64,000 bases of DNA. Source: Neonectria sp. B-13 (Eukaryota > Ascomycota > Sordariomycetes > Hypocreales > Nectriaceae). The DNA is taken from assembly GCA_002682825.1 (NCBI GenBank), contig NOKP01000018.1, positions 871,783 through 935,782 of the forward strand, given 5' to 3'. The notes beneath the pieces were generated by a model. The model was given only the letters and a program-made list of their open reading frames with translations. It was not told where the DNA came from and did not search any database. Of the stretch, positions 9,486-56,984 are shown piece after piece; position 1 is the first letter of the stretch; each line of letters begins with the position of its first letter. The position numbers and the translations under genes were made by a program.

Positions 9486-11940
9486 ATGACCGACCGGAAC
9501 CCCGCGGCCATGGGCAAGAGCGGCAAAACGGGCGAGCGAGTCAAAATGGAAGACGGCAAGGGAAAGGACGGCGACAAGCCCGCCGCTGGCCCTGAGAGCG
9601 CGCCCGCCAATGCCCACAAGAGTCCCAAGAAGAGACGCAAGGTGAACCACGGTACGCAGTCCTAGAAAGTCCCCGTTGCGTCCATCGTCAGCCGCGCTCG
9701 AGGACGAGGCCGAGTGAGAGTTGTGGTGTTCTGTGGTGTTGAGAGTGTGCGCTTTGCGGCTGAAGAGCGGCGGCAACCACATCCCAACCCATTGAGCCCC
9801 AGCTCTCGCTGAAATGGCATCGAGGGCGTGGCAGGGGCATGTTGAACAGAGAAACGAACTTGGGCTGACATTGCCGGCGCGCGCGCGTTCCTACAGCTTG
9901 CGTATATTGCCGACGATCTGTAAGTCAACACCGGATGAACATGCGCACGCGCAATTGGCTCCGGCCGCCGTCCCTGGGCGCTCCGAGGCGCTCGACTATT
10001 TGTCCTATGCCTTTGTGCGGCGACACAGCGCCCACGGGCTTCCCCCTTTCCCCCTTGTCTGCATTTGCATCGAGTCCTTGAGAGAGGCGTGGCTGACGGG
10101 CTTTTGCTTGTGCACGGTTAGCACATGACTTGCGATCTCGTATGTAATATCTTGAACGAACCCTTCTCCTCCGTTGGCGCCGCCTCTATTGCTGGTGGTG
10201 TTCGCTGAGAAAGAGGGCTTGCTCGCTTCCCCCCCCTTCCTCTAAGAAAGCCATGCGCTGACAATGTGGATAGGAGAGGCCATGTACGAGATGTATCAAA
10301 CGCAACATCGGGCACCTCTGTCACGACGAGCCCCGAGATACCGACTCCAAAAAAGCCAAGAGCATCCAGACCTCGTCCGTTGTCGATGAGTCTGACGCCC
10401 AGTCCGATATGGCCCGCAGCTCCATCTCGAGCACCATGGGCCCACCCCCAAACTTCGATGGAACCAGACGCAAGTCAGGGTTCGCGTCCGGGGGTGTGTT
10501 GGGACAAGGCAACCCGCTCCCCCTTGTGCAACCGGGGCCCGTCTCCGGCCTGCAGGGAAATACGTTGAACAACGGTAACAACAATGCGAATCAATGTACG
10601 TCTCAAGCACCCTCTGTCCTGCCTGCCCTGCTTAGGGGGGCGCCTGGTCTTTTTTTTTTGCTTGTTTTGATTTTTAACCCACTGCGGAGAACGGGAGCGG
10701 CCGTCACCGACTTATTGACCTTAATCATATCGACTGACACGCCACTTAGTCGCTGGCTTCCAGGATGCATGGATGACGGCCCAGAACCACTTCCATGACA
10801 TGCACAGCTACCACCCCAACTACATGATCCCGCCAGAGGTAACTCACGAGTTTAGCCTGCTCAACGACTTTCTTCATACTAGTTTGTTAGATGACGGCGG
10901 AGTGCCGTCCGACGATCAGCAGAGCCCGGCATTCAGACGATCGAGCCAGTCGGAGATGCTACCCGCCTTCGGTAACAACAACTCGATGCAGCCCGGCGGC
11001 GTCAACCCGGCCAACATGTCAGGGGGACCGATGCTGCCCCCGCCGAACCTCGATACCAAGAACATGTCCAAGTCGGGGGGTACATTGCCTGCCGACAAGG
11101 CCCGTGAGTATTACCTCCAAGCCGCCGACCCCTCGGGCAACGACACCCCCGAGGAACGTATGGCGCGGGTCCTCCGGGCCAAGTACGACGCCGGCCTGCT
11201 CAAGCCCTTCAACTATATTAAGGGCTATGCGCGTCTGGGCACCTATCTAGACAGCCATATCGCGCCGTCATCTAAGCAGAAGATCCTACGGACTATCAAC
11301 CAATTCCGGCCCAAGTTCCGAGAAAAGGCCCAGGCCTTGACGGACATGGAGCTCGTGTACGTGGAGATGTGGTTCGAGAAGCAGCTCATGGATTATGACC
11401 GGGTCTTTGCGAGCATGGCAGTACCGGCCTGTTGCTGGCGGAGAACTGGAGAGATCTTCCGGGGTAACAAGGAGATGGCCGAGTTGATTGGCGTGTCGGT
11501 GGATAAACTAAGAGATGTGGGTTGTCCCCGCCCCCGCGCTCTTTATGCCCCTGAGGCTCCCCTCATTCCAGAGGACAACGACTGGTGTTTTAGGGCAACG
11601 CTTGCTGACTTATTCTTGACGACATAGGGTAAGATTGCATTGCACGAGATTCTCACAGAAGAATCCATGGTCCGATACTGGGAGGAGTTTGGAACGATCG
11701 CTTTCGACCCGGCTCACGAGACGCTCCTGACAGCGTGCTCGCTGAAGAACCCCACACCAGCGTCAAACCATCCGGTTGTAAAATGCTGCTTCTCCTTTAT
11801 GATTCGTCGAGATGATCATAAACTGTACGTCTTCTTCCCCTCTCCCTTCTTGGCCGCCGGACCGGTTGCTGACTTGTCCCTTAAACAGGCCGGCCTTGAT
11901 CGTAGGCAACTTTTTGCCACATGACCCGCCTGCACAGTAA
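9486..11940 (+). CDS. acuM: AcuM/Rds2-type Zn2Cys6 activator of gluconeogenesis
   Basis: Exons 9486-9651, 9897-9919, 10122-10139, 10274-10595, 10750-11516, 11628-11824 and 11889-11940 encode 514 aa. Residues 47-55 are a basic nuclear-localisation patch. The zinc cluster uses Cys57, 60, 67, 73, 76 and 85 (C-X2-C-X6-C-X5-C-X2-C-X8-C) and reads CVYCRRSHMTCD...CIKRNIGHLCHDE, closest in my knowledge to yeast Rds2 and Aspergillus AcuM; the AcuK/Ert1 cluster looks different. A Gln/Asn/Pro-rich linker follows, then a C-terminal PAS-like domain from about residue 390 (CCWRRTGEIFRGNKEMAEL) to LIVGNFLPHDPP near the end. The family activates PEP carboxykinase and fructose-1,6-bisphosphatase genes on non-sugar carbon sources, usually as an AcuK-AcuM pair. 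The zinc cluster is split over four exons, two of them only 23 and 18 nt. The paralogue assignment rests on the cluster sequence. Confidence 0.88.
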
Positions 11941-12415
11941 CAGCAAGGAATACTGGTCACAAGAGATGTTGGTACATGTGGCCCTCTGGTACACGAAGGG
12001 CAGGATTCAGAACCGGGACTGGGCGGCTATTGATTAGCATTGCAACAAGCGGAAGAGCAAGGGGTCCTTTTGGGGCGTAAGGACATGCGCAGGATTCATA
12101 TTCGTATATACTGTCTATGATAGGCTAGATAGCAGGGCCTGTCTAAACATCATTACCGTTATCGTCGTCGCTGTCTTGGAAGTGCCTACGCCATACGGAT
12201 TATAGTTGGGAGAACGCGCAGGGGAGGCCGCTCCTGCCAGTCCGGCGCAGCTGGACAACCACCCGGGCAGGCACGAGTTTCTTTTCACGCACTGCCTAAG
12301 TACCTCAGGTACCTATTACTAGTAGGAAATTGCAGGTATCTGGTCCCGCATTATAACTTCAACTTAACGCTTGCAGCAATGTGCGGAAGCCATTGTCGGC
12401 CATCTCGCATCCCGT
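11941..12415. other. Intergenic between acuM and zip4
   Basis: 475 bp with no coding signal. It holds short palindromic AGGTACCT-like tracts near 12300-12320 and presumably the acuM terminator and zip4 promoter. Confidence 0.6.
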
Positions 12416-15400
12416 ATGGCACCCACCGATCCGGCTGCCGCAGGTCGCGACAGAAAGCTCAATGCCATATTAGGTTGAGCCGCTCCCTAGCCCTCTCAGA
12501 CTTACCATTTGGCTAACCAAAGTTGTGGAAGACTTTTCTAAGGACCTTCTCTCAACGCTATCGAGCTCCCGCGATTGCGCCTCGTTCGAAGGCCTCCTCG
12601 CCGACCTTAACCACCACATTCACACCGTAAACGCCTTACCACTGAAGGCTGTTAGCCTGTCCTCTGAGGTTGCGAAACCCTTCAAAGACGTTGGAAGGAA
12701 GCTATGGAATCTATGTATTAAGGAGAGAAGGAAGAATGACGTGTCGGCGTCGTCGGAGAGGGCGAGGTTGTTGGTCAGAACAAGGATCTTTGCCTTTCTG
12801 ATCCATGCGCTGGCGCGAGAGAACCGCCGAGGCAAGAAGGCAGGTGCTAATGAAGAGGAGATTGTGCATCTGACACACTTGGCACTGACCGTCGGGAGGC
12901 TCTGCATCGAAGCGTCCGACCTGAATGGGGCACGGCTGGGCTTGCACAAGGTTGCGGACTACGTTGAGCGACTGAAGCTGAGTGACGGAGACTGTCATGG
13001 AGATCCAGATATGAGGAGCAAGTTTGAAGCAGAGTACCTTACAATGCGTACGGCTCTGGTAGGGCTGAATCCATCGTTTGTAGGCCTGGCTAACAGCCTA
13101 GCAGTCTTGGAAAGAGGATCGACTCGACGTAGCGGAGCATATGTACACCAAAGCGGAAGGCCTTCGACATCATCTCGATCCACCCTCAGCCGAACTAATG
13201 GCAGATACTCTGCAGCACATCGGAGGCGATTTATCCTCGAAGGGCGATTATGCGATGGCATTGAAATGGCTTCGTCGAGCATACGAGCTGATTAACAGCC
13301 AAGAGTTGGAGCGTCTCTCCGCCGAAGGATTGGAACTTCGGCTAGCAATTTGCCACCAGCTCGTCCAAGTGCTTCTTGCAATTGGATCCCCAGAGAATCT
13401 CCGAGAAGCCGACGACTTAGTTGCTTACGTGGAGTCGGAGATTGGGGACAAGCTGGTTGTCTTGCACTGGAAGCTGGAAATTCTGCAGAAGTCGCCGGCC
13501 GAGGTGTTTGACACGGATGCCTGCACAAGCATACTACGGAGGATGATCCGGTCTACTGATTTCTCAGATGCTGTTCTCGGGTTTCTCCTTCACAACATCA
13601 AGGAGTTGCGTGACAGGAATTTCCCGCTCGCCGTGGGATTGCTGGATGAGCTGCTACTGACGAGGCTGTTACCATTGGCAAACCCAGATTGGATTGGAAA
13701 GACCATTGTCCGTCGTGTATGGATGAGCACGATGGAGACTGACGCTCCTAGTGGCGCCACTGACCTGATGGCTCTCATTGCGCGAGTCTCACAGGAGTCT
13801 TCTACCTTGCTCAACGCAGATGCCACTATTGCTGCGCAGTCGGTATGTAATAACCCGCTTGGTGAGGCCTCTTTGCTGACCCAAAAAGCTCATGTGGAAA
13901 AAGCTGGATGCACTCTACCTAAAAAAAGAGTATAAAACAGCAGAGCTTTGGTGCCAAGTCGCCCTGCAACCAGCGTTCTCTAAATGTGGCGAGGCAAATC
14001 AAGGAAAGTTTTCCAGGAAACTCATTATATGTGCAATAGCCTGCAATGACATTGAAACAGCCCGTTCAGCCTTCCATTCTATGTCAAAGACCGTACAAGA
14101 CGACCCCTTGACAAGATATCTCATGTTCAAGGCTGCGCTCATAGGCTGGGATCATGAACTCGGCTGCCAGAGTATCGAGCAGCTGAGCAAATCTGCCGAC
14201 AAGGAAAAAAGTCAAAACATTCTCTACGCCTGTATTAGAGAAGCACAACAGGTCGGCGACAGGTTATGCACGTTGGCGGCGCTAAAAGCTGTTCTAGAGA
14301 AGTTCGACTTGGGAACATCCTCGAAAGCACACTTCCCCTCGCTTCTGAGGTGCACGATCAGGCTGATCTACTTGATTGAGAGTCAAGAAGAAGACAACTC
14401 AAATCAGGATATTGAACTTGCCAAAGATACTTGCAACATCTTCGAGAAAGGTCGGTTGCGCCTATTCAACGACATGGAAGAGGCTGACAATGCTAGCTGC
14501 CGAGAATGCAAGGCTAGACATAAGAGATGAGGATGGTAACAAAGTGTTTACGGTATCAGAGCTGGAGTGGTTCCGAAAAAATGCGTATAACATTGGCGTC
14601 ACAAAATGCCACGTTTAGGGACTGTGGCATTTAACTCGCATATTTGGTGCTTGTCTCGCTTTCATCGGCTGCTTCCCTGGAGATATCCCATCAAGAGACA
14701 CATCCGACATACGATTTATGGCAATGCGGTGCCATTTTGTCATATCTGCGGCTCTTGTATCGCAGGCTCGAACAGAGGACAAGGTGGATGAGCAACTTCA
14801 GCGGTATGTGGAGATGAGACAACATGTCGCAGCATTCGACAATGCGTTTGAAAGCATGTCTCAAAATGAATTAACATCAAGTGATGGACCAGTCATGGGA
14901 GATATGCTGGTCAAGCTTTCGACCCTCTTCGTGTTTGACTTTGAAGGTGCGGTTTGCCTCAAAGGCTGGGACCAACTAGCAGAGATTGTGAGGAAAGCAA
15001 AAGTCTGCAAAGATGAGTTGATGTACAAGGCTATGGGAGATTGCCTGTTGAGAAGTCAAGCTCCGGGAAATGGTACGCATACAGAAAACAAGGACTGGGA
15101 TATTGTTGGTTGACCTGTCTTACAGTGCTCTACGCGACGATGCGCCTCGTCATCAACCAGATTTTTGAGCTTGAGGATTTTGACAACCAGAGGCTCGCAA
15201 AGTACATCCGCTGCATGTACCAAGCTATTCTTCCCCTAGACGACAACTTAGCGTTGCAGGTCGTTGACCAAGCCCTCCAAATCGCCCGTGAGGGCAGTCA
15301 GGTATCTACTCTCCATTCTTCCTTCAAGGATCTGCCCCTTTTGGGACTCGTACTAACCGCTCCAACACATACAGATGCAAAACCCATTCCCCGAGGATGA

Positions 15401-15590
15401 ACTCGACTGGGTCGTCGCTACAACGTTCAACCACGCCATTGATATTCTTGCGCGGGGCGACGAAGCCTTGTGTCATCAGTGGGCGCTCAAGGCGCTCGAC
15501 ATGGCCGAGTATATGGACGATGGAGGCGACATGCGAAATGTTTTGCAGGAGAGGGTTATCAAGCTGGGCTTTGGCAAAGACACGCACTAG
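12416..15590 (+). CDS. spo22: Zip4/Spo22 meiosis protein with an in-frame TAG (candidate edited codon)
   Basis: Exons 12416-12473, 12523-13058, 13105-13842, 13889-14450, 14497-15072, 15126-15301 and 15375-15590 total 954 codons. Zip4/Spo22 is a TPR-rich scaffold of the synapsis initiation complex that promotes meiotic crossovers. Family-like segments include SWKEDRLDVAEHMYTKAE after intron 2, helical TPR-like repeats through the middle, LEWFRKNAYNIGVTKC, and AALVSQARTEDKVDEQLQRY. Codon 672 (14616-14618) is TAG. The frame continues open and family-like on both sides, so the coding information for 282 further codons is intact. I recall tryptophan at this place in relatives, so UAG to UGG recoding would restore it. 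Read literally, the gene yields a 671-aa truncated product. An in-frame intron ending at this TAG is formally possible but would remove the conserved LEWFRKNAYN segment. The first exon and its GTTGAG donor are the least certain part. Confidence 0.85.
14604..14632 (+). promoter_or_regulatory. Hairpin presenting the zip4 TAG: candidate A-to-I mRNA editing site
   Basis: AAATGCCAC (14604-14612) pairs perfectly with GTGGCATTT (14624-14632), leaving the 11-nt loop GTTTAGGGACT. The TAG is in the loop, its A is at 14617, and the base before it is T. Fungal perithecium-specific A-to-I editing is known to favour adenosines in hairpin loops with U at -1, and to recode UAG to UGG in some sexual-stage genes of Fusarium and Neurospora. 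Editing here is inferred, not shown. Confidence 0.6.
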
Positions 15591-55155: not shown

Positions 55156-56984
55156 ATGCTGCCCAACATGAAAGCCCTCGCCACCCTCTTTCTCTTCAAC
55201 TCCTTTTCTCGAATTTTGGTTCAGTCCAGCCCATTCGACGGCGTCGATCCTACTACCGTTAGTTGCGATGCCGAATACCTCAACGACGCAGGCGCCCAGG
55301 CGGCTGACCGCTGGGCTGCTGCTGGCGCGGAACAGGCCTTCACGGAAGCAACCATTCAATGGGGCTGGTACCAAGGCACTTCCGACGCCGGAAGACTTAC
55401 TTTTAGCGAGTTCATTGGAAACTCGTTCAACTCCAGGGACTTGATGGTCTGCCAGAACATGGGTGACGGTCCGTGTGAGAGCACAATGACCTGCTCTGAA
55501 GTCAACCAACCAGCCGGGTATGAAGAAGTGGACAGAGAGGACGATTCCAGTACTGATACTTGTCATAGGTTTCTCATCCTAAATTCTTTCGTTTCACTGC
55601 ACGTGGTGGGTCCCCGTTGCGCACTTCAATCGTTTGGTATACTAATCGAAGTCCTTTCTGCCAGATGCGCCGGAATATCTACGAAGGCCTACAGAACGGA
55701 ATGAACGAGATGCAAAGTGAACTGGGACGCTTCCAAGAGACCTTTGCTCCCGAGGCGCAGCCTACGAAAGGAAACAGCTGGATTTCAGATATGATTACCG
55801 TCTTCCAATTCATCGTCGGCATTGGGTCTGCATACGCGTGGAACGTTGGTAAATGTTCCTTCTGGCTACTTCGAATACGGGCACACTGACCTGACATGCA
55901 CAAAAAGCGGCCAAGGAAGCTGCCATCATTGCGAACGCGAATTTCCATGCCTTCGCCGCAGAGTCTGTCAACGCAGCCATCGGCATGGCTTTCACGGTTG
56001 GAAAAAACCACCTTCCCACGTACGTTGCCGTTGGCTAGCTCTGCTACAGTGGAGGTTTTGGATCTCGGTTTTGACAATTATCTAGCGCTTCTGAAACCAA
56101 CAATGATCTCTCCCTTGGAATGGGCACTCTCTTCGAGGCGTGGATCGACGCCGAGCTCGAATTCTTGAATGAGCTGTTCAACGGCACCAACGAATCCGTC
56201 GCCACTCTGGAAGGGTTGGTGAAGAACGGCATGGCTCTCGAGATCACCCGAAACCTGGACCTCGGCGACTTCGTGAACGTGGCTCAGAAGATCATGTACA
56301 CACAGCTCATGCCCACTGCCTGGAAGATCTCATCCAAGAGCATCGACGCCCTTCCGAACAAGATGGCGCCAATGATTATGTGAGCATCTACTTGATTCAG
56401 TGCGTGATTTCAGCTGCTGATATGTGATTGATAGGATGGTGCCGGGTGACTGTGTCAAAGATGGTGATGACTTGAACATGTATCTGAACGAGGACGATGC
56501 CGGGAAGATGGCAGTCTGCCACGACGGCCATACCTTCTATCTGGGCTACCCAGCCTTTTCAATGATGGTGAGAGCGCCGGAAGGAGAGGGAGCCGCCAAG
56601 ACCATGTTCGAGTTCAGGCCTCTGCCCGGTGGAACGACGGACGAGCTCGACGGCACGAAATGGGGCGGCGTGACGCTTGAAGATCTCGTCATCAGCGCCT
56701 ACGAAGGATGGCGCCTGAACGGTGGGAAGGGCGGCTACGAGATCCCGGAAGACTCCAAGGCAATCGACGGCCTGGGCACTCAGGGTGGCCTCATCATGGA
56801 GAAGGGCATTCAGACGCCAGGCTTCTCCAAGATCCCAATCTGCACTCCAGACAGGGCTTTGAGCGCGGCTTTCGACTGGGTGGCCTCCCAGTTCTATGAC
56901 ATGCTCGACGACGAAGATGCTCAGAAGTTCCCCTGTGGCGATGGTACCCCGATGGAGTGGGAGATGGCGGATTGGGGGTACTAG
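55156..56984 (+). CDS. Secreted protein of unknown function
   Basis: Exons 55156-55517, 55569-55605, 55665-55848, 55908-56019, 56086-56379 and 56435-56984 give 512 aa. The start is the first ATG in frame and opens a signal peptide (about 24 residues: charged start, then ALATLFLFNSF). The mature part has eight cysteines, a central helical, Ala-rich stretch (AAKEAAIIANANFHAFAAE) and a C-terminal domain with MMVPGDCVKDGDDLN and YLGYPAFSMMV. All five introns are 51-66 nt with good borders; the 37-nt second exon has two possible donors that differ by one codon. I do not recognise the family and assign no activity. Paralogues in plant-associated fungi seem likely but I cannot confirm that here. Confidence 0.82.

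What the first reader, a model, noticed from the sequence alone, without database searches (positions are those of the whole stretch)
14604..14632. In-frame TAG of zip4/spo22 sits in the loop of a perfect hairpin: candidate A-to-I stop-recoding site
Seen: codon 672 of the spliced zip4 frame is TAG, yet the same frame stays open for another 282 codons, with three further exons' worth of family-like sequence and intact splice sites. AAATGCCAC and GTGGCATTT flank it as a perfect 9-bp stem with an 11-nt loop; the A (14617) is in the loop and has T before it. Known: Sordariomycetes edit A to I in mRNA only during sexual development, favouring hairpin loops and U at -1, and some genes such as PUK1 of Fusarium graminearum need UAG to UGG editing. 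Zip4 is itself a meiotic protein. Inference: editing restores Trp672 and ties full-length Zip4 to perithecium development. A nonsense mutation or sequencing error would not explain the hairpin or the preserved downstream frame.
Basis: partly seen in the sequence, partly recalled or inferred. Interest (0 to 1): 0.92.

Follow-up and report, generated by a model that had tools for sequence, protein, structure and literature searches.

The report
Meiosis gene stop codon, RNA-edited away
A fungal meiosis gene carries a stop codon in its middle of the kind that such fungi erase in the messenger RNA during sexual development, and a number of its relatives carry a stop at the same place.

Summary
The spliced zip4/SPO22 gene (12416-15590, +) has one in-frame TAG (14616-14618; codon 663 in my model) followed by 281 intact codons. 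The A sits in the loop of a hairpin with a perfect 9-bp stem, and all six neighbours (-2 to +4) match the published preference of fungal A-to-I editing. In relatives, every row read through at this codon has Trp (81, plus 3 with Trp shifted by an insertion); but in Nectriaceae 9 annotated proteins end exactly here, and 51 of 66 rows of the first search have a gap over it. F. oxysporum rows encode Trp. The part behind the stop is more conserved than the part before it in the 8 relatives compared. The same genome holds a PUK1-like kinase with TAGTAG, a Tad2-like gene and an Ame1 candidate with the key residues. Liu et al. 2016 already list the Fusarium graminearum orthologue, FGRRES_01563 (SPO22), among 69 genes with UAG-to-UGG editing in perithecia. 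New here: the probable age of the stop (base of Nectriaceae), the Trp in F. oxysporum, and that much of the hairpin is built into the amino-acid sequence. No RNA of this species was seen.

The parts
12416..15590 (+). zip4/SPO22 gene model, seven exons: 12416-12443, 12523-13058, 13102-13842, 13889-14450, 14497-15072, 15126-15301, 15375-15590 (944 codons including the internal TAG, then a stop)
   Evidence: model; one PF08631 hit in the genome; nearest Neonectria punicea, 89% over 471 columns
14616..14618 (+). in-frame TAG, codon 663; predicted UAG-to-UGG (Trp) edited codon
   Evidence: stop at the homologous codon in 9 annotated relatives; Trp in rows read through
14617..14617 (+). predicted edited adenosine; context UU-A-GGGA fits all six preferred positions
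   Evidence: preferences from PMC9600606 section 6
14604..14612 (+). 5' arm of the hairpin (codes K-C-H)
14624..14632 (+). 3' arm of the hairpin (codes part of L-W-H-L)
14451..14496 (+). intron 4 (GT..CTGAC..TAG), needed to enter the frame that holds the TAG
14553..14618 (+). 66-nt in-frame GT...TAG stretch that would remove the stop if spliced; a like stretch is cut out in several relatives' annotations; no CTRAC/TTGAC branch site, unlike the six introns of the model
14619..15590 (+). coding part behind the stop (rest of exon 5, exons 6-7), used only if the stop is overcome

Best explanation
The TAG is a conserved premature-stop-correction (PSC) site of sexual-stage A-to-I mRNA editing. In perithecia the Tad2-Tad3 deaminase with Ame1 deaminates A14617 in the UAGG loop, UAG becomes UIG (read as UGG, Trp) and full-length Zip4 is made for meiosis; unedited transcripts would give a 662-residue protein without the last 12 helices. 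Shown here: the stop, the intact and conserved frame behind it, the sequence context and hairpin, a stop at the same codon in relatives, and a PUK1-like kinase with TAGTAG, a Tad2-like gene, an Ame1 candidate and a MAT alpha-box gene in the same genome. In print for the F. graminearum orthologue: UAG-to-UGG editing of this gene in perithecia. Inferred: that A14617 is edited in this species, by this complex, and that meiosis depends on it.
For: Published editing of the SPO22 orthologue FGRRES_01563 (PMC4817773, passages); P0081, FGSG_01563, has a gap over the homologous codon. 9 Nectriaceae proteins end exactly before the site (7, 2). 12 of the 51 gapped Nectriaceae rows resume at the very next codon, as expected if the annotators used the TAG as a 3' splice site. 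Rows read through have Trp: 81, plus 3 shifted. Identity before (400-640) and behind (665-944) the stop: N. punicea 87.3/90.0%, I. robusta 74.0/83.2%, F. graminearum 51.9/66.7%. Context and hairpin. Machinery: Tad2-like, DUF726 gene with M-V and E-x-R at the published Ame1 spacing, PUK1-like gene with TAGTAG, alpha-box gene without stop.
Against: No RNA of this species was available. The exact edited base of FGRRES_01563 is in a supplement I could not open. A gap alone does not prove a stop: 8 Trichoderma rows have one too, and 4 of those 8 species have another row that reads Trp. Two rows of the Nectriaceae clade besides F. oxysporum read Trp (P0018, P0005), so the stop is not universal there. 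Given the protein, the hairpin is only mildly special. Tad3 was not identified. The DNA methylase genes, a family with a published PSC member (FgRID), showed no stop in their matched parts.
Confidence: 0.88

Rival explanations
1. An in-frame exitron: 14553-14618 (66 nt, GT...TAG) is spliced out, so the TAG is only a 3' splice site.
For: 7 of 12 rows that resume at the next codon are cut at K[VL]FT|G, the corresponding place (Ilyonectria, Dactylonectria, Fusarium). The length is a multiple of 3. FgBUD14 shows both editing and splicing of an intron containing its PSC site (PMC11156358).
Against: It would delete ELxWFxxNAYN, kept as far as Podospora. No YTRAC branch site, while the six introns of the model have one 10-22 nt from the end. 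Liu et al. state that such PSC exons were wrongly annotated as introns. Relatives are cut at many different places.
Confidence: 0.06
2. A dying gene: recent nonsense mutation or RIP-type change (TGG to TAG) in a strain that has lost sex.
For: TGG-to-TAG is a change RIP could make (recalled); Zip4 should be dispensable outside meiosis.
Against: A stop at the same codon in 9 other annotated proteins; the rest of the frame is open; the part behind the stop is more conserved than the part before in 8 of 8 relatives compared; one SPO22 hit in the genome; alpha-box gene without stop.
Confidence: 0.03
3. Translational read-through or a suppressor tRNA decodes the UAG.
For: The frame behind the stop is under selection.
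Against: Relatives have Trp, and UGG is exactly what A-to-I gives; editing is reported in the orthologue; the PUK1-like gene of the same genome has two UAGs where PUK1 has its edited ones.
Confidence: 0.02
4. Sequencing or assembly error (genomic TGG).
For: A single base; the assembly has odd mirrored contigs.
Against: The homologous stop in closely related N. magnoliae (P0093) and in other genera.
Confidence: 0.01

Closest known systems
FGRRES_01563 / FGSG_01563 (SPO22/ZIP4 orthologue) PSC editing, Fusarium graminearum (Liu et al. 2016, PMC4817773)
   Same: Orthologous gene; UAG-to-UGG in perithecia in an exon that annotation took for an intron; the gap in P0081 spans the homologous codon.
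   Different: Another genus; here seen in DNA only. The exact edited base in the paper's supplement was not readable.
PUK1 tandem UAGUAG editing (F. graminearum; single UAGs in N. crassa and F. verticillioides)
   Same: Restorative UAG-to-UGG at Trp codons; the window's genome carries a PUK1-like gene with TAGTAG.
   Different: Kinase; proteins ending at its site occur in several orders, whereas the zip4 stop was seen only in Nectriaceae rows.
CHE1 PSC site conserved in Fusarium (PMC11169179)
   Same: Conserved PSC site, hairpin loop, and the same annotation faults: truncation or a false intron (passages).
   Different: Edited in hyphae; transcription factor; reported for closely related Fusarium species.

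Membership tests
Fungal premature-stop-correction (PSC) A-to-I editing site | in-frame UAG with family-like, conserved sequence behind it | tested here: met
Fungal premature-stop-correction (PSC) A-to-I editing site | U at -1 and preferred bases at -2 and +1 to +4 | tested here: met
   UU-A-GGGA; 42 of 1136 window TAGs have all six; preferences
Fungal premature-stop-correction (PSC) A-to-I editing site | A in a stable hairpin loop (30 nt each side) | tested here: met
   (kept in a 244-nt fold); weak as independent proof,
Fungal premature-stop-correction (PSC) A-to-I editing site | UGG (Trp) restores the residue found in relatives | tested here: met
Fungal premature-stop-correction (PSC) A-to-I editing site | editing machinery in the genome (Tad2, Tad3, Ame1) | tested here: inconclusive
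   Tad2-like gene and Ame1 candidate found; Tad3 not identified among the hits looked at
Fungal premature-stop-correction (PSC) A-to-I editing site | A/G difference between genome and perithecial mRNA, absent in hyphae | not testable with these tools
   no RNA data here; reported for the F. graminearum orthologue
Zip4/SPO22 | SPO22 domain PF08631 and likeness to fungal Zip4 | tested here: met

The most novel reading that the evidence does not exclude
The meiotic gene zip4 acquired a stop in the ancestor of Nectriaceae and has depended on RNA editing since. The stop went back to a hard-wired Trp in F. oxysporum, for which no sexual stage is known (recalled), and in two other lineages. The hairpin arose with a clade-specific Trp three codons downstream (K-C-H-V-stop-G-L-W-H-L), so protein sequence and editing substrate evolved together.
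Probability: 0.55. Interest if true: 0.62.

Novelty: new member of a known kind. Interest (0 to 1): 0.5.

Why it matters
It ties a crossover/synapsis protein to sexual-stage RNA editing over much of a fungal family, and gives natural controls (F. oxysporum with genomic Trp beside sisters with the stop) for the open question whether restorative editing is adaptive or a neutral ratchet. It also shows that 58 of the 66 Nectriaceae-clade Zip4 rows of the first search are cut or gapped at this site.

Tried and rejected
Considered and rejected: RIP or decay (part behind the stop more conserved); exitron (no branch site, conserved segment lost); error (same stop in relatives). Rfam gave nothing at gathering thresholds. 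DNA methylases, which include the known PSC gene RID, showed no stop in the 4 matched stretches; the site may lie outside them. Of 11 other TAG-split frames in the window only two were looked at: 11625 looks like an ordinary intron end, 56982 has no Pfam match. Relatives' DNA could not be fetched, so hairpin conservation was judged from residues only. Papers: (zip4, FGSG_01563, Spo22 with editing terms; 20 of 67 papers were listed) showed only Liu et al. 2016 joining the gene and fungal editing; the other spelling, FGRRES_01563, was not searched. One search found no paper with Neonectria and RNA editing.

The scan for 'nearly invariant' Trp rests on 28 rows that I picked mostly because they read Trp, so I do not use it; one search counts all 168 rows. 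My script first put P0036 and P0115 under 'skip'; their sequences show Trp, corrected. In one search three rows (P0054, P0058, P0059) caught by the pattern are gapped rows, not readings of the site.

Full report
Gene and site. The window lies in a 60.9-Mb, 123-contig fungal genome. Its Zip4 is nearest to Neonectria punicea (89% over 471 columns), then N. magnoliae and N. ditissima, so the source is a Neonectria-like fungus (Neonectria is placed in Nectriaceae). The seven-exon model gives 944 codons with one internal TAG at codon 663, 14616-14618. The six introns of the model have a CTRAC or TTGAC motif 10-22 nt from their 3' end. PF08631 matches once in the genome.

Structure and context. The 9-bp stem is perfect, and RNAfold extends it to a UAGG tetraloop with A14617 second; the hairpin is also in the MFE and centroid of a 244-nt fold. 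Of 1136 TAGs on both strands of the window, this alone lies in a 3-12 nt loop of a perfect stem of 9 or more. Positions -2 to +4 (UU-A-GGGA) all match the preferences in PMC9600606 section 6; 42 of 1136 TAGs do. The hairpin is less independent evidence than it looks: with the amino acids fixed, 63% of 2000 synonymous variants still place the A in a hairpin loop, 2.5% of 20000 have a stem of 9 or more, and 17% fold as stably.

Relatives. A search with residues 400-944 gave 134 proteins, 120 listed. At the homologous codon the 66 rows of the Nectriaceae clade (65 by source name, the family of three genera checked and the rest recalled, plus unnamed P0005 placed there by the tree) divide into 7 that end exactly there, 51 that have a gap over it and go on behind it, and 8 that read Trp; the 54 other rows into 44 Trp, 2 Trp shifted by two residues, and 8 gaps, all Trichoderma. 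The 8 Trp rows of the clade are 6 of F. oxysporum, P0018 (source: F. lateritium) and P0005. Without F. oxysporum, Trp is readable in 2 of 60 against 46 of 54 (Fisher p = 9e-21; rows are not independent). Gaps alone are weak evidence, since four of the eight gapped Trichoderma species have another row with Trp. Two further kinds are stronger: proteins that end at the stop (N. magnoliae, Cosmosporella sp., F. heterosporum, F. lateritium P0117, F. musae, F. falciforme, F. culmorum; F. duplospermum and F. poae), and 12 of the 51 gapped rows that resume at the very next codon, which, for an intron between codons, asks for AG at the end of the skipped codon. A second search with the pre-stop part gave 123 proteins, 120 listed, 48 of them new: 2 end at the site, 25 read Trp (none from Nectriaceae by source name), and 21 were not read by that script. 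Over all 168 rows a pattern that does not ask for Trp reads Trp in 81, Trp shifted by an insertion in 3 (P0098, P0110, P0284), and no other residue; 9 end there; the rest cannot be read at the site. On the tree, coding only ends (with the window) and Trp, four changes suffice, and four also if Nectriaceae gaps are counted as stops. With Trp outgroups the simplest reading is one gain of the stop at the base of the family and three returns to Trp. The tree is a quick one with many weak forks.

The hairpin's residues. In all 12 rows that resume right behind the stop the third codon on is Trp (G[LVM]W), as in the window; in readable Trp rows outside the clade it is P, S, R, Q, F, V and the like. 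That Trp codon forms the core of the 3' arm here. Hairpins in relatives are thus inferred, not seen.

The part behind the stop. Identity to the window is higher behind the stop (665-944) than before it (400-640) in 8 of 8 relatives compared. A model of P0018 (mean pLDDT 87.7, pTM 0.57) is nearly all helix; the homologous Trp669 lies in the turn between helices 648-664 and 671-686, and truncation would remove the last 12 helices.

Is the genome able to edit? A kinase domain at C1:4483355-4483543 (-) reads ...KYDGRCD**SIGIILYECLYG with TAGTAG at the place of the WW of DWWS; the stretch occurs once in the genome. Among 120 listed relatives 22 end at Y-D-[GA]-R-C-[DG] or one Trp further, 18 read WWS, and 80 do neither. 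This is the pattern of PUK1, whose two UAGs are edited at 91 and 99% in F. graminearum (PMC11156358). No listed relative is named PUK1, so the orthology is by pattern. A Tad2-like gene (HAE...PCVMC, motif recalled) is on C45. Of three distinct DUF726 genes, one of them present in two mirrored copies, the one on C2 has M-V at 499-500, E545 and R547, the spacing of MV500-501, E546 and R548 of FgAme1 (PMC11087585, passages); the other two have other residues at M-V, though one shares the E. One alpha-box gene (PF04769) without stop is present. Tad3 was not identified.

Literature. PMC4817773 (passages) lists FGRRES_01563, orthologue of yeast SPO22, among 69 genes with PUK1-like UAG-to-UGG editing in perithecia, in exons wrongly annotated as introns. 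FGSG_01563 is our P0081 by number and name. The exact base is in a supplement not readable here. PMC11156358 (two of three parts read), PMC9600606 (passages and section 6), PMC11087585 and PMC11169179 (passages) supply mechanism and preferences.

Verdict. It is a new orthologous member of a known kind of site; the probable age of the stop and its return to Trp in F. oxysporum are the new parts.

Noticed in passing
Protein rows P0010-P0013, P0027, P0053: F. oxysporum Zip4 encodes Trp at the stop position (KCHVWGLWYL), while F. musae ends and F. verticillioides is gapped there.
   Followed up: partly
G000:C1:4483355-4483543 (-), L032: PUK1-like kinase with tandem TAGTAG at the place of the WW of DWWS.
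   Followed up: yes
window 10725-12416: An acuK/ERT1-like gene lies just upstream on the same strand; 34 of the 120 listed Zip4 rows carry PF24990, 33 of them together with the SPO22 domain, as acuK-zip4 fusions. Real transcripts or annotation faults is open.
   Followed up: no
G000 contigs C27, C45, C47, C50, C72, C95, C105, C114: The same matches occur twice in mirror orientation on one contig: large palindromic contigs, real or assembly artefacts.
   Followed up: no
Trichoderma rows P0068, P0094-P0096, P0099, P0101, P0102, P0104: An in-frame segment over the same site is left out of the protein although other Trichoderma rows read Trp: possible exitron or pipeline habit.
   Followed up: no
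window 56982-56984 (+): TAG after a 187-residue open frame with a further 89 open codons; no Pfam match on either side.
   Followed up: partly
window 11625-11627 (+): TAG between two acuK-like frames; TTGAC just before it suggests an ordinary intron end.
   Followed up: partly
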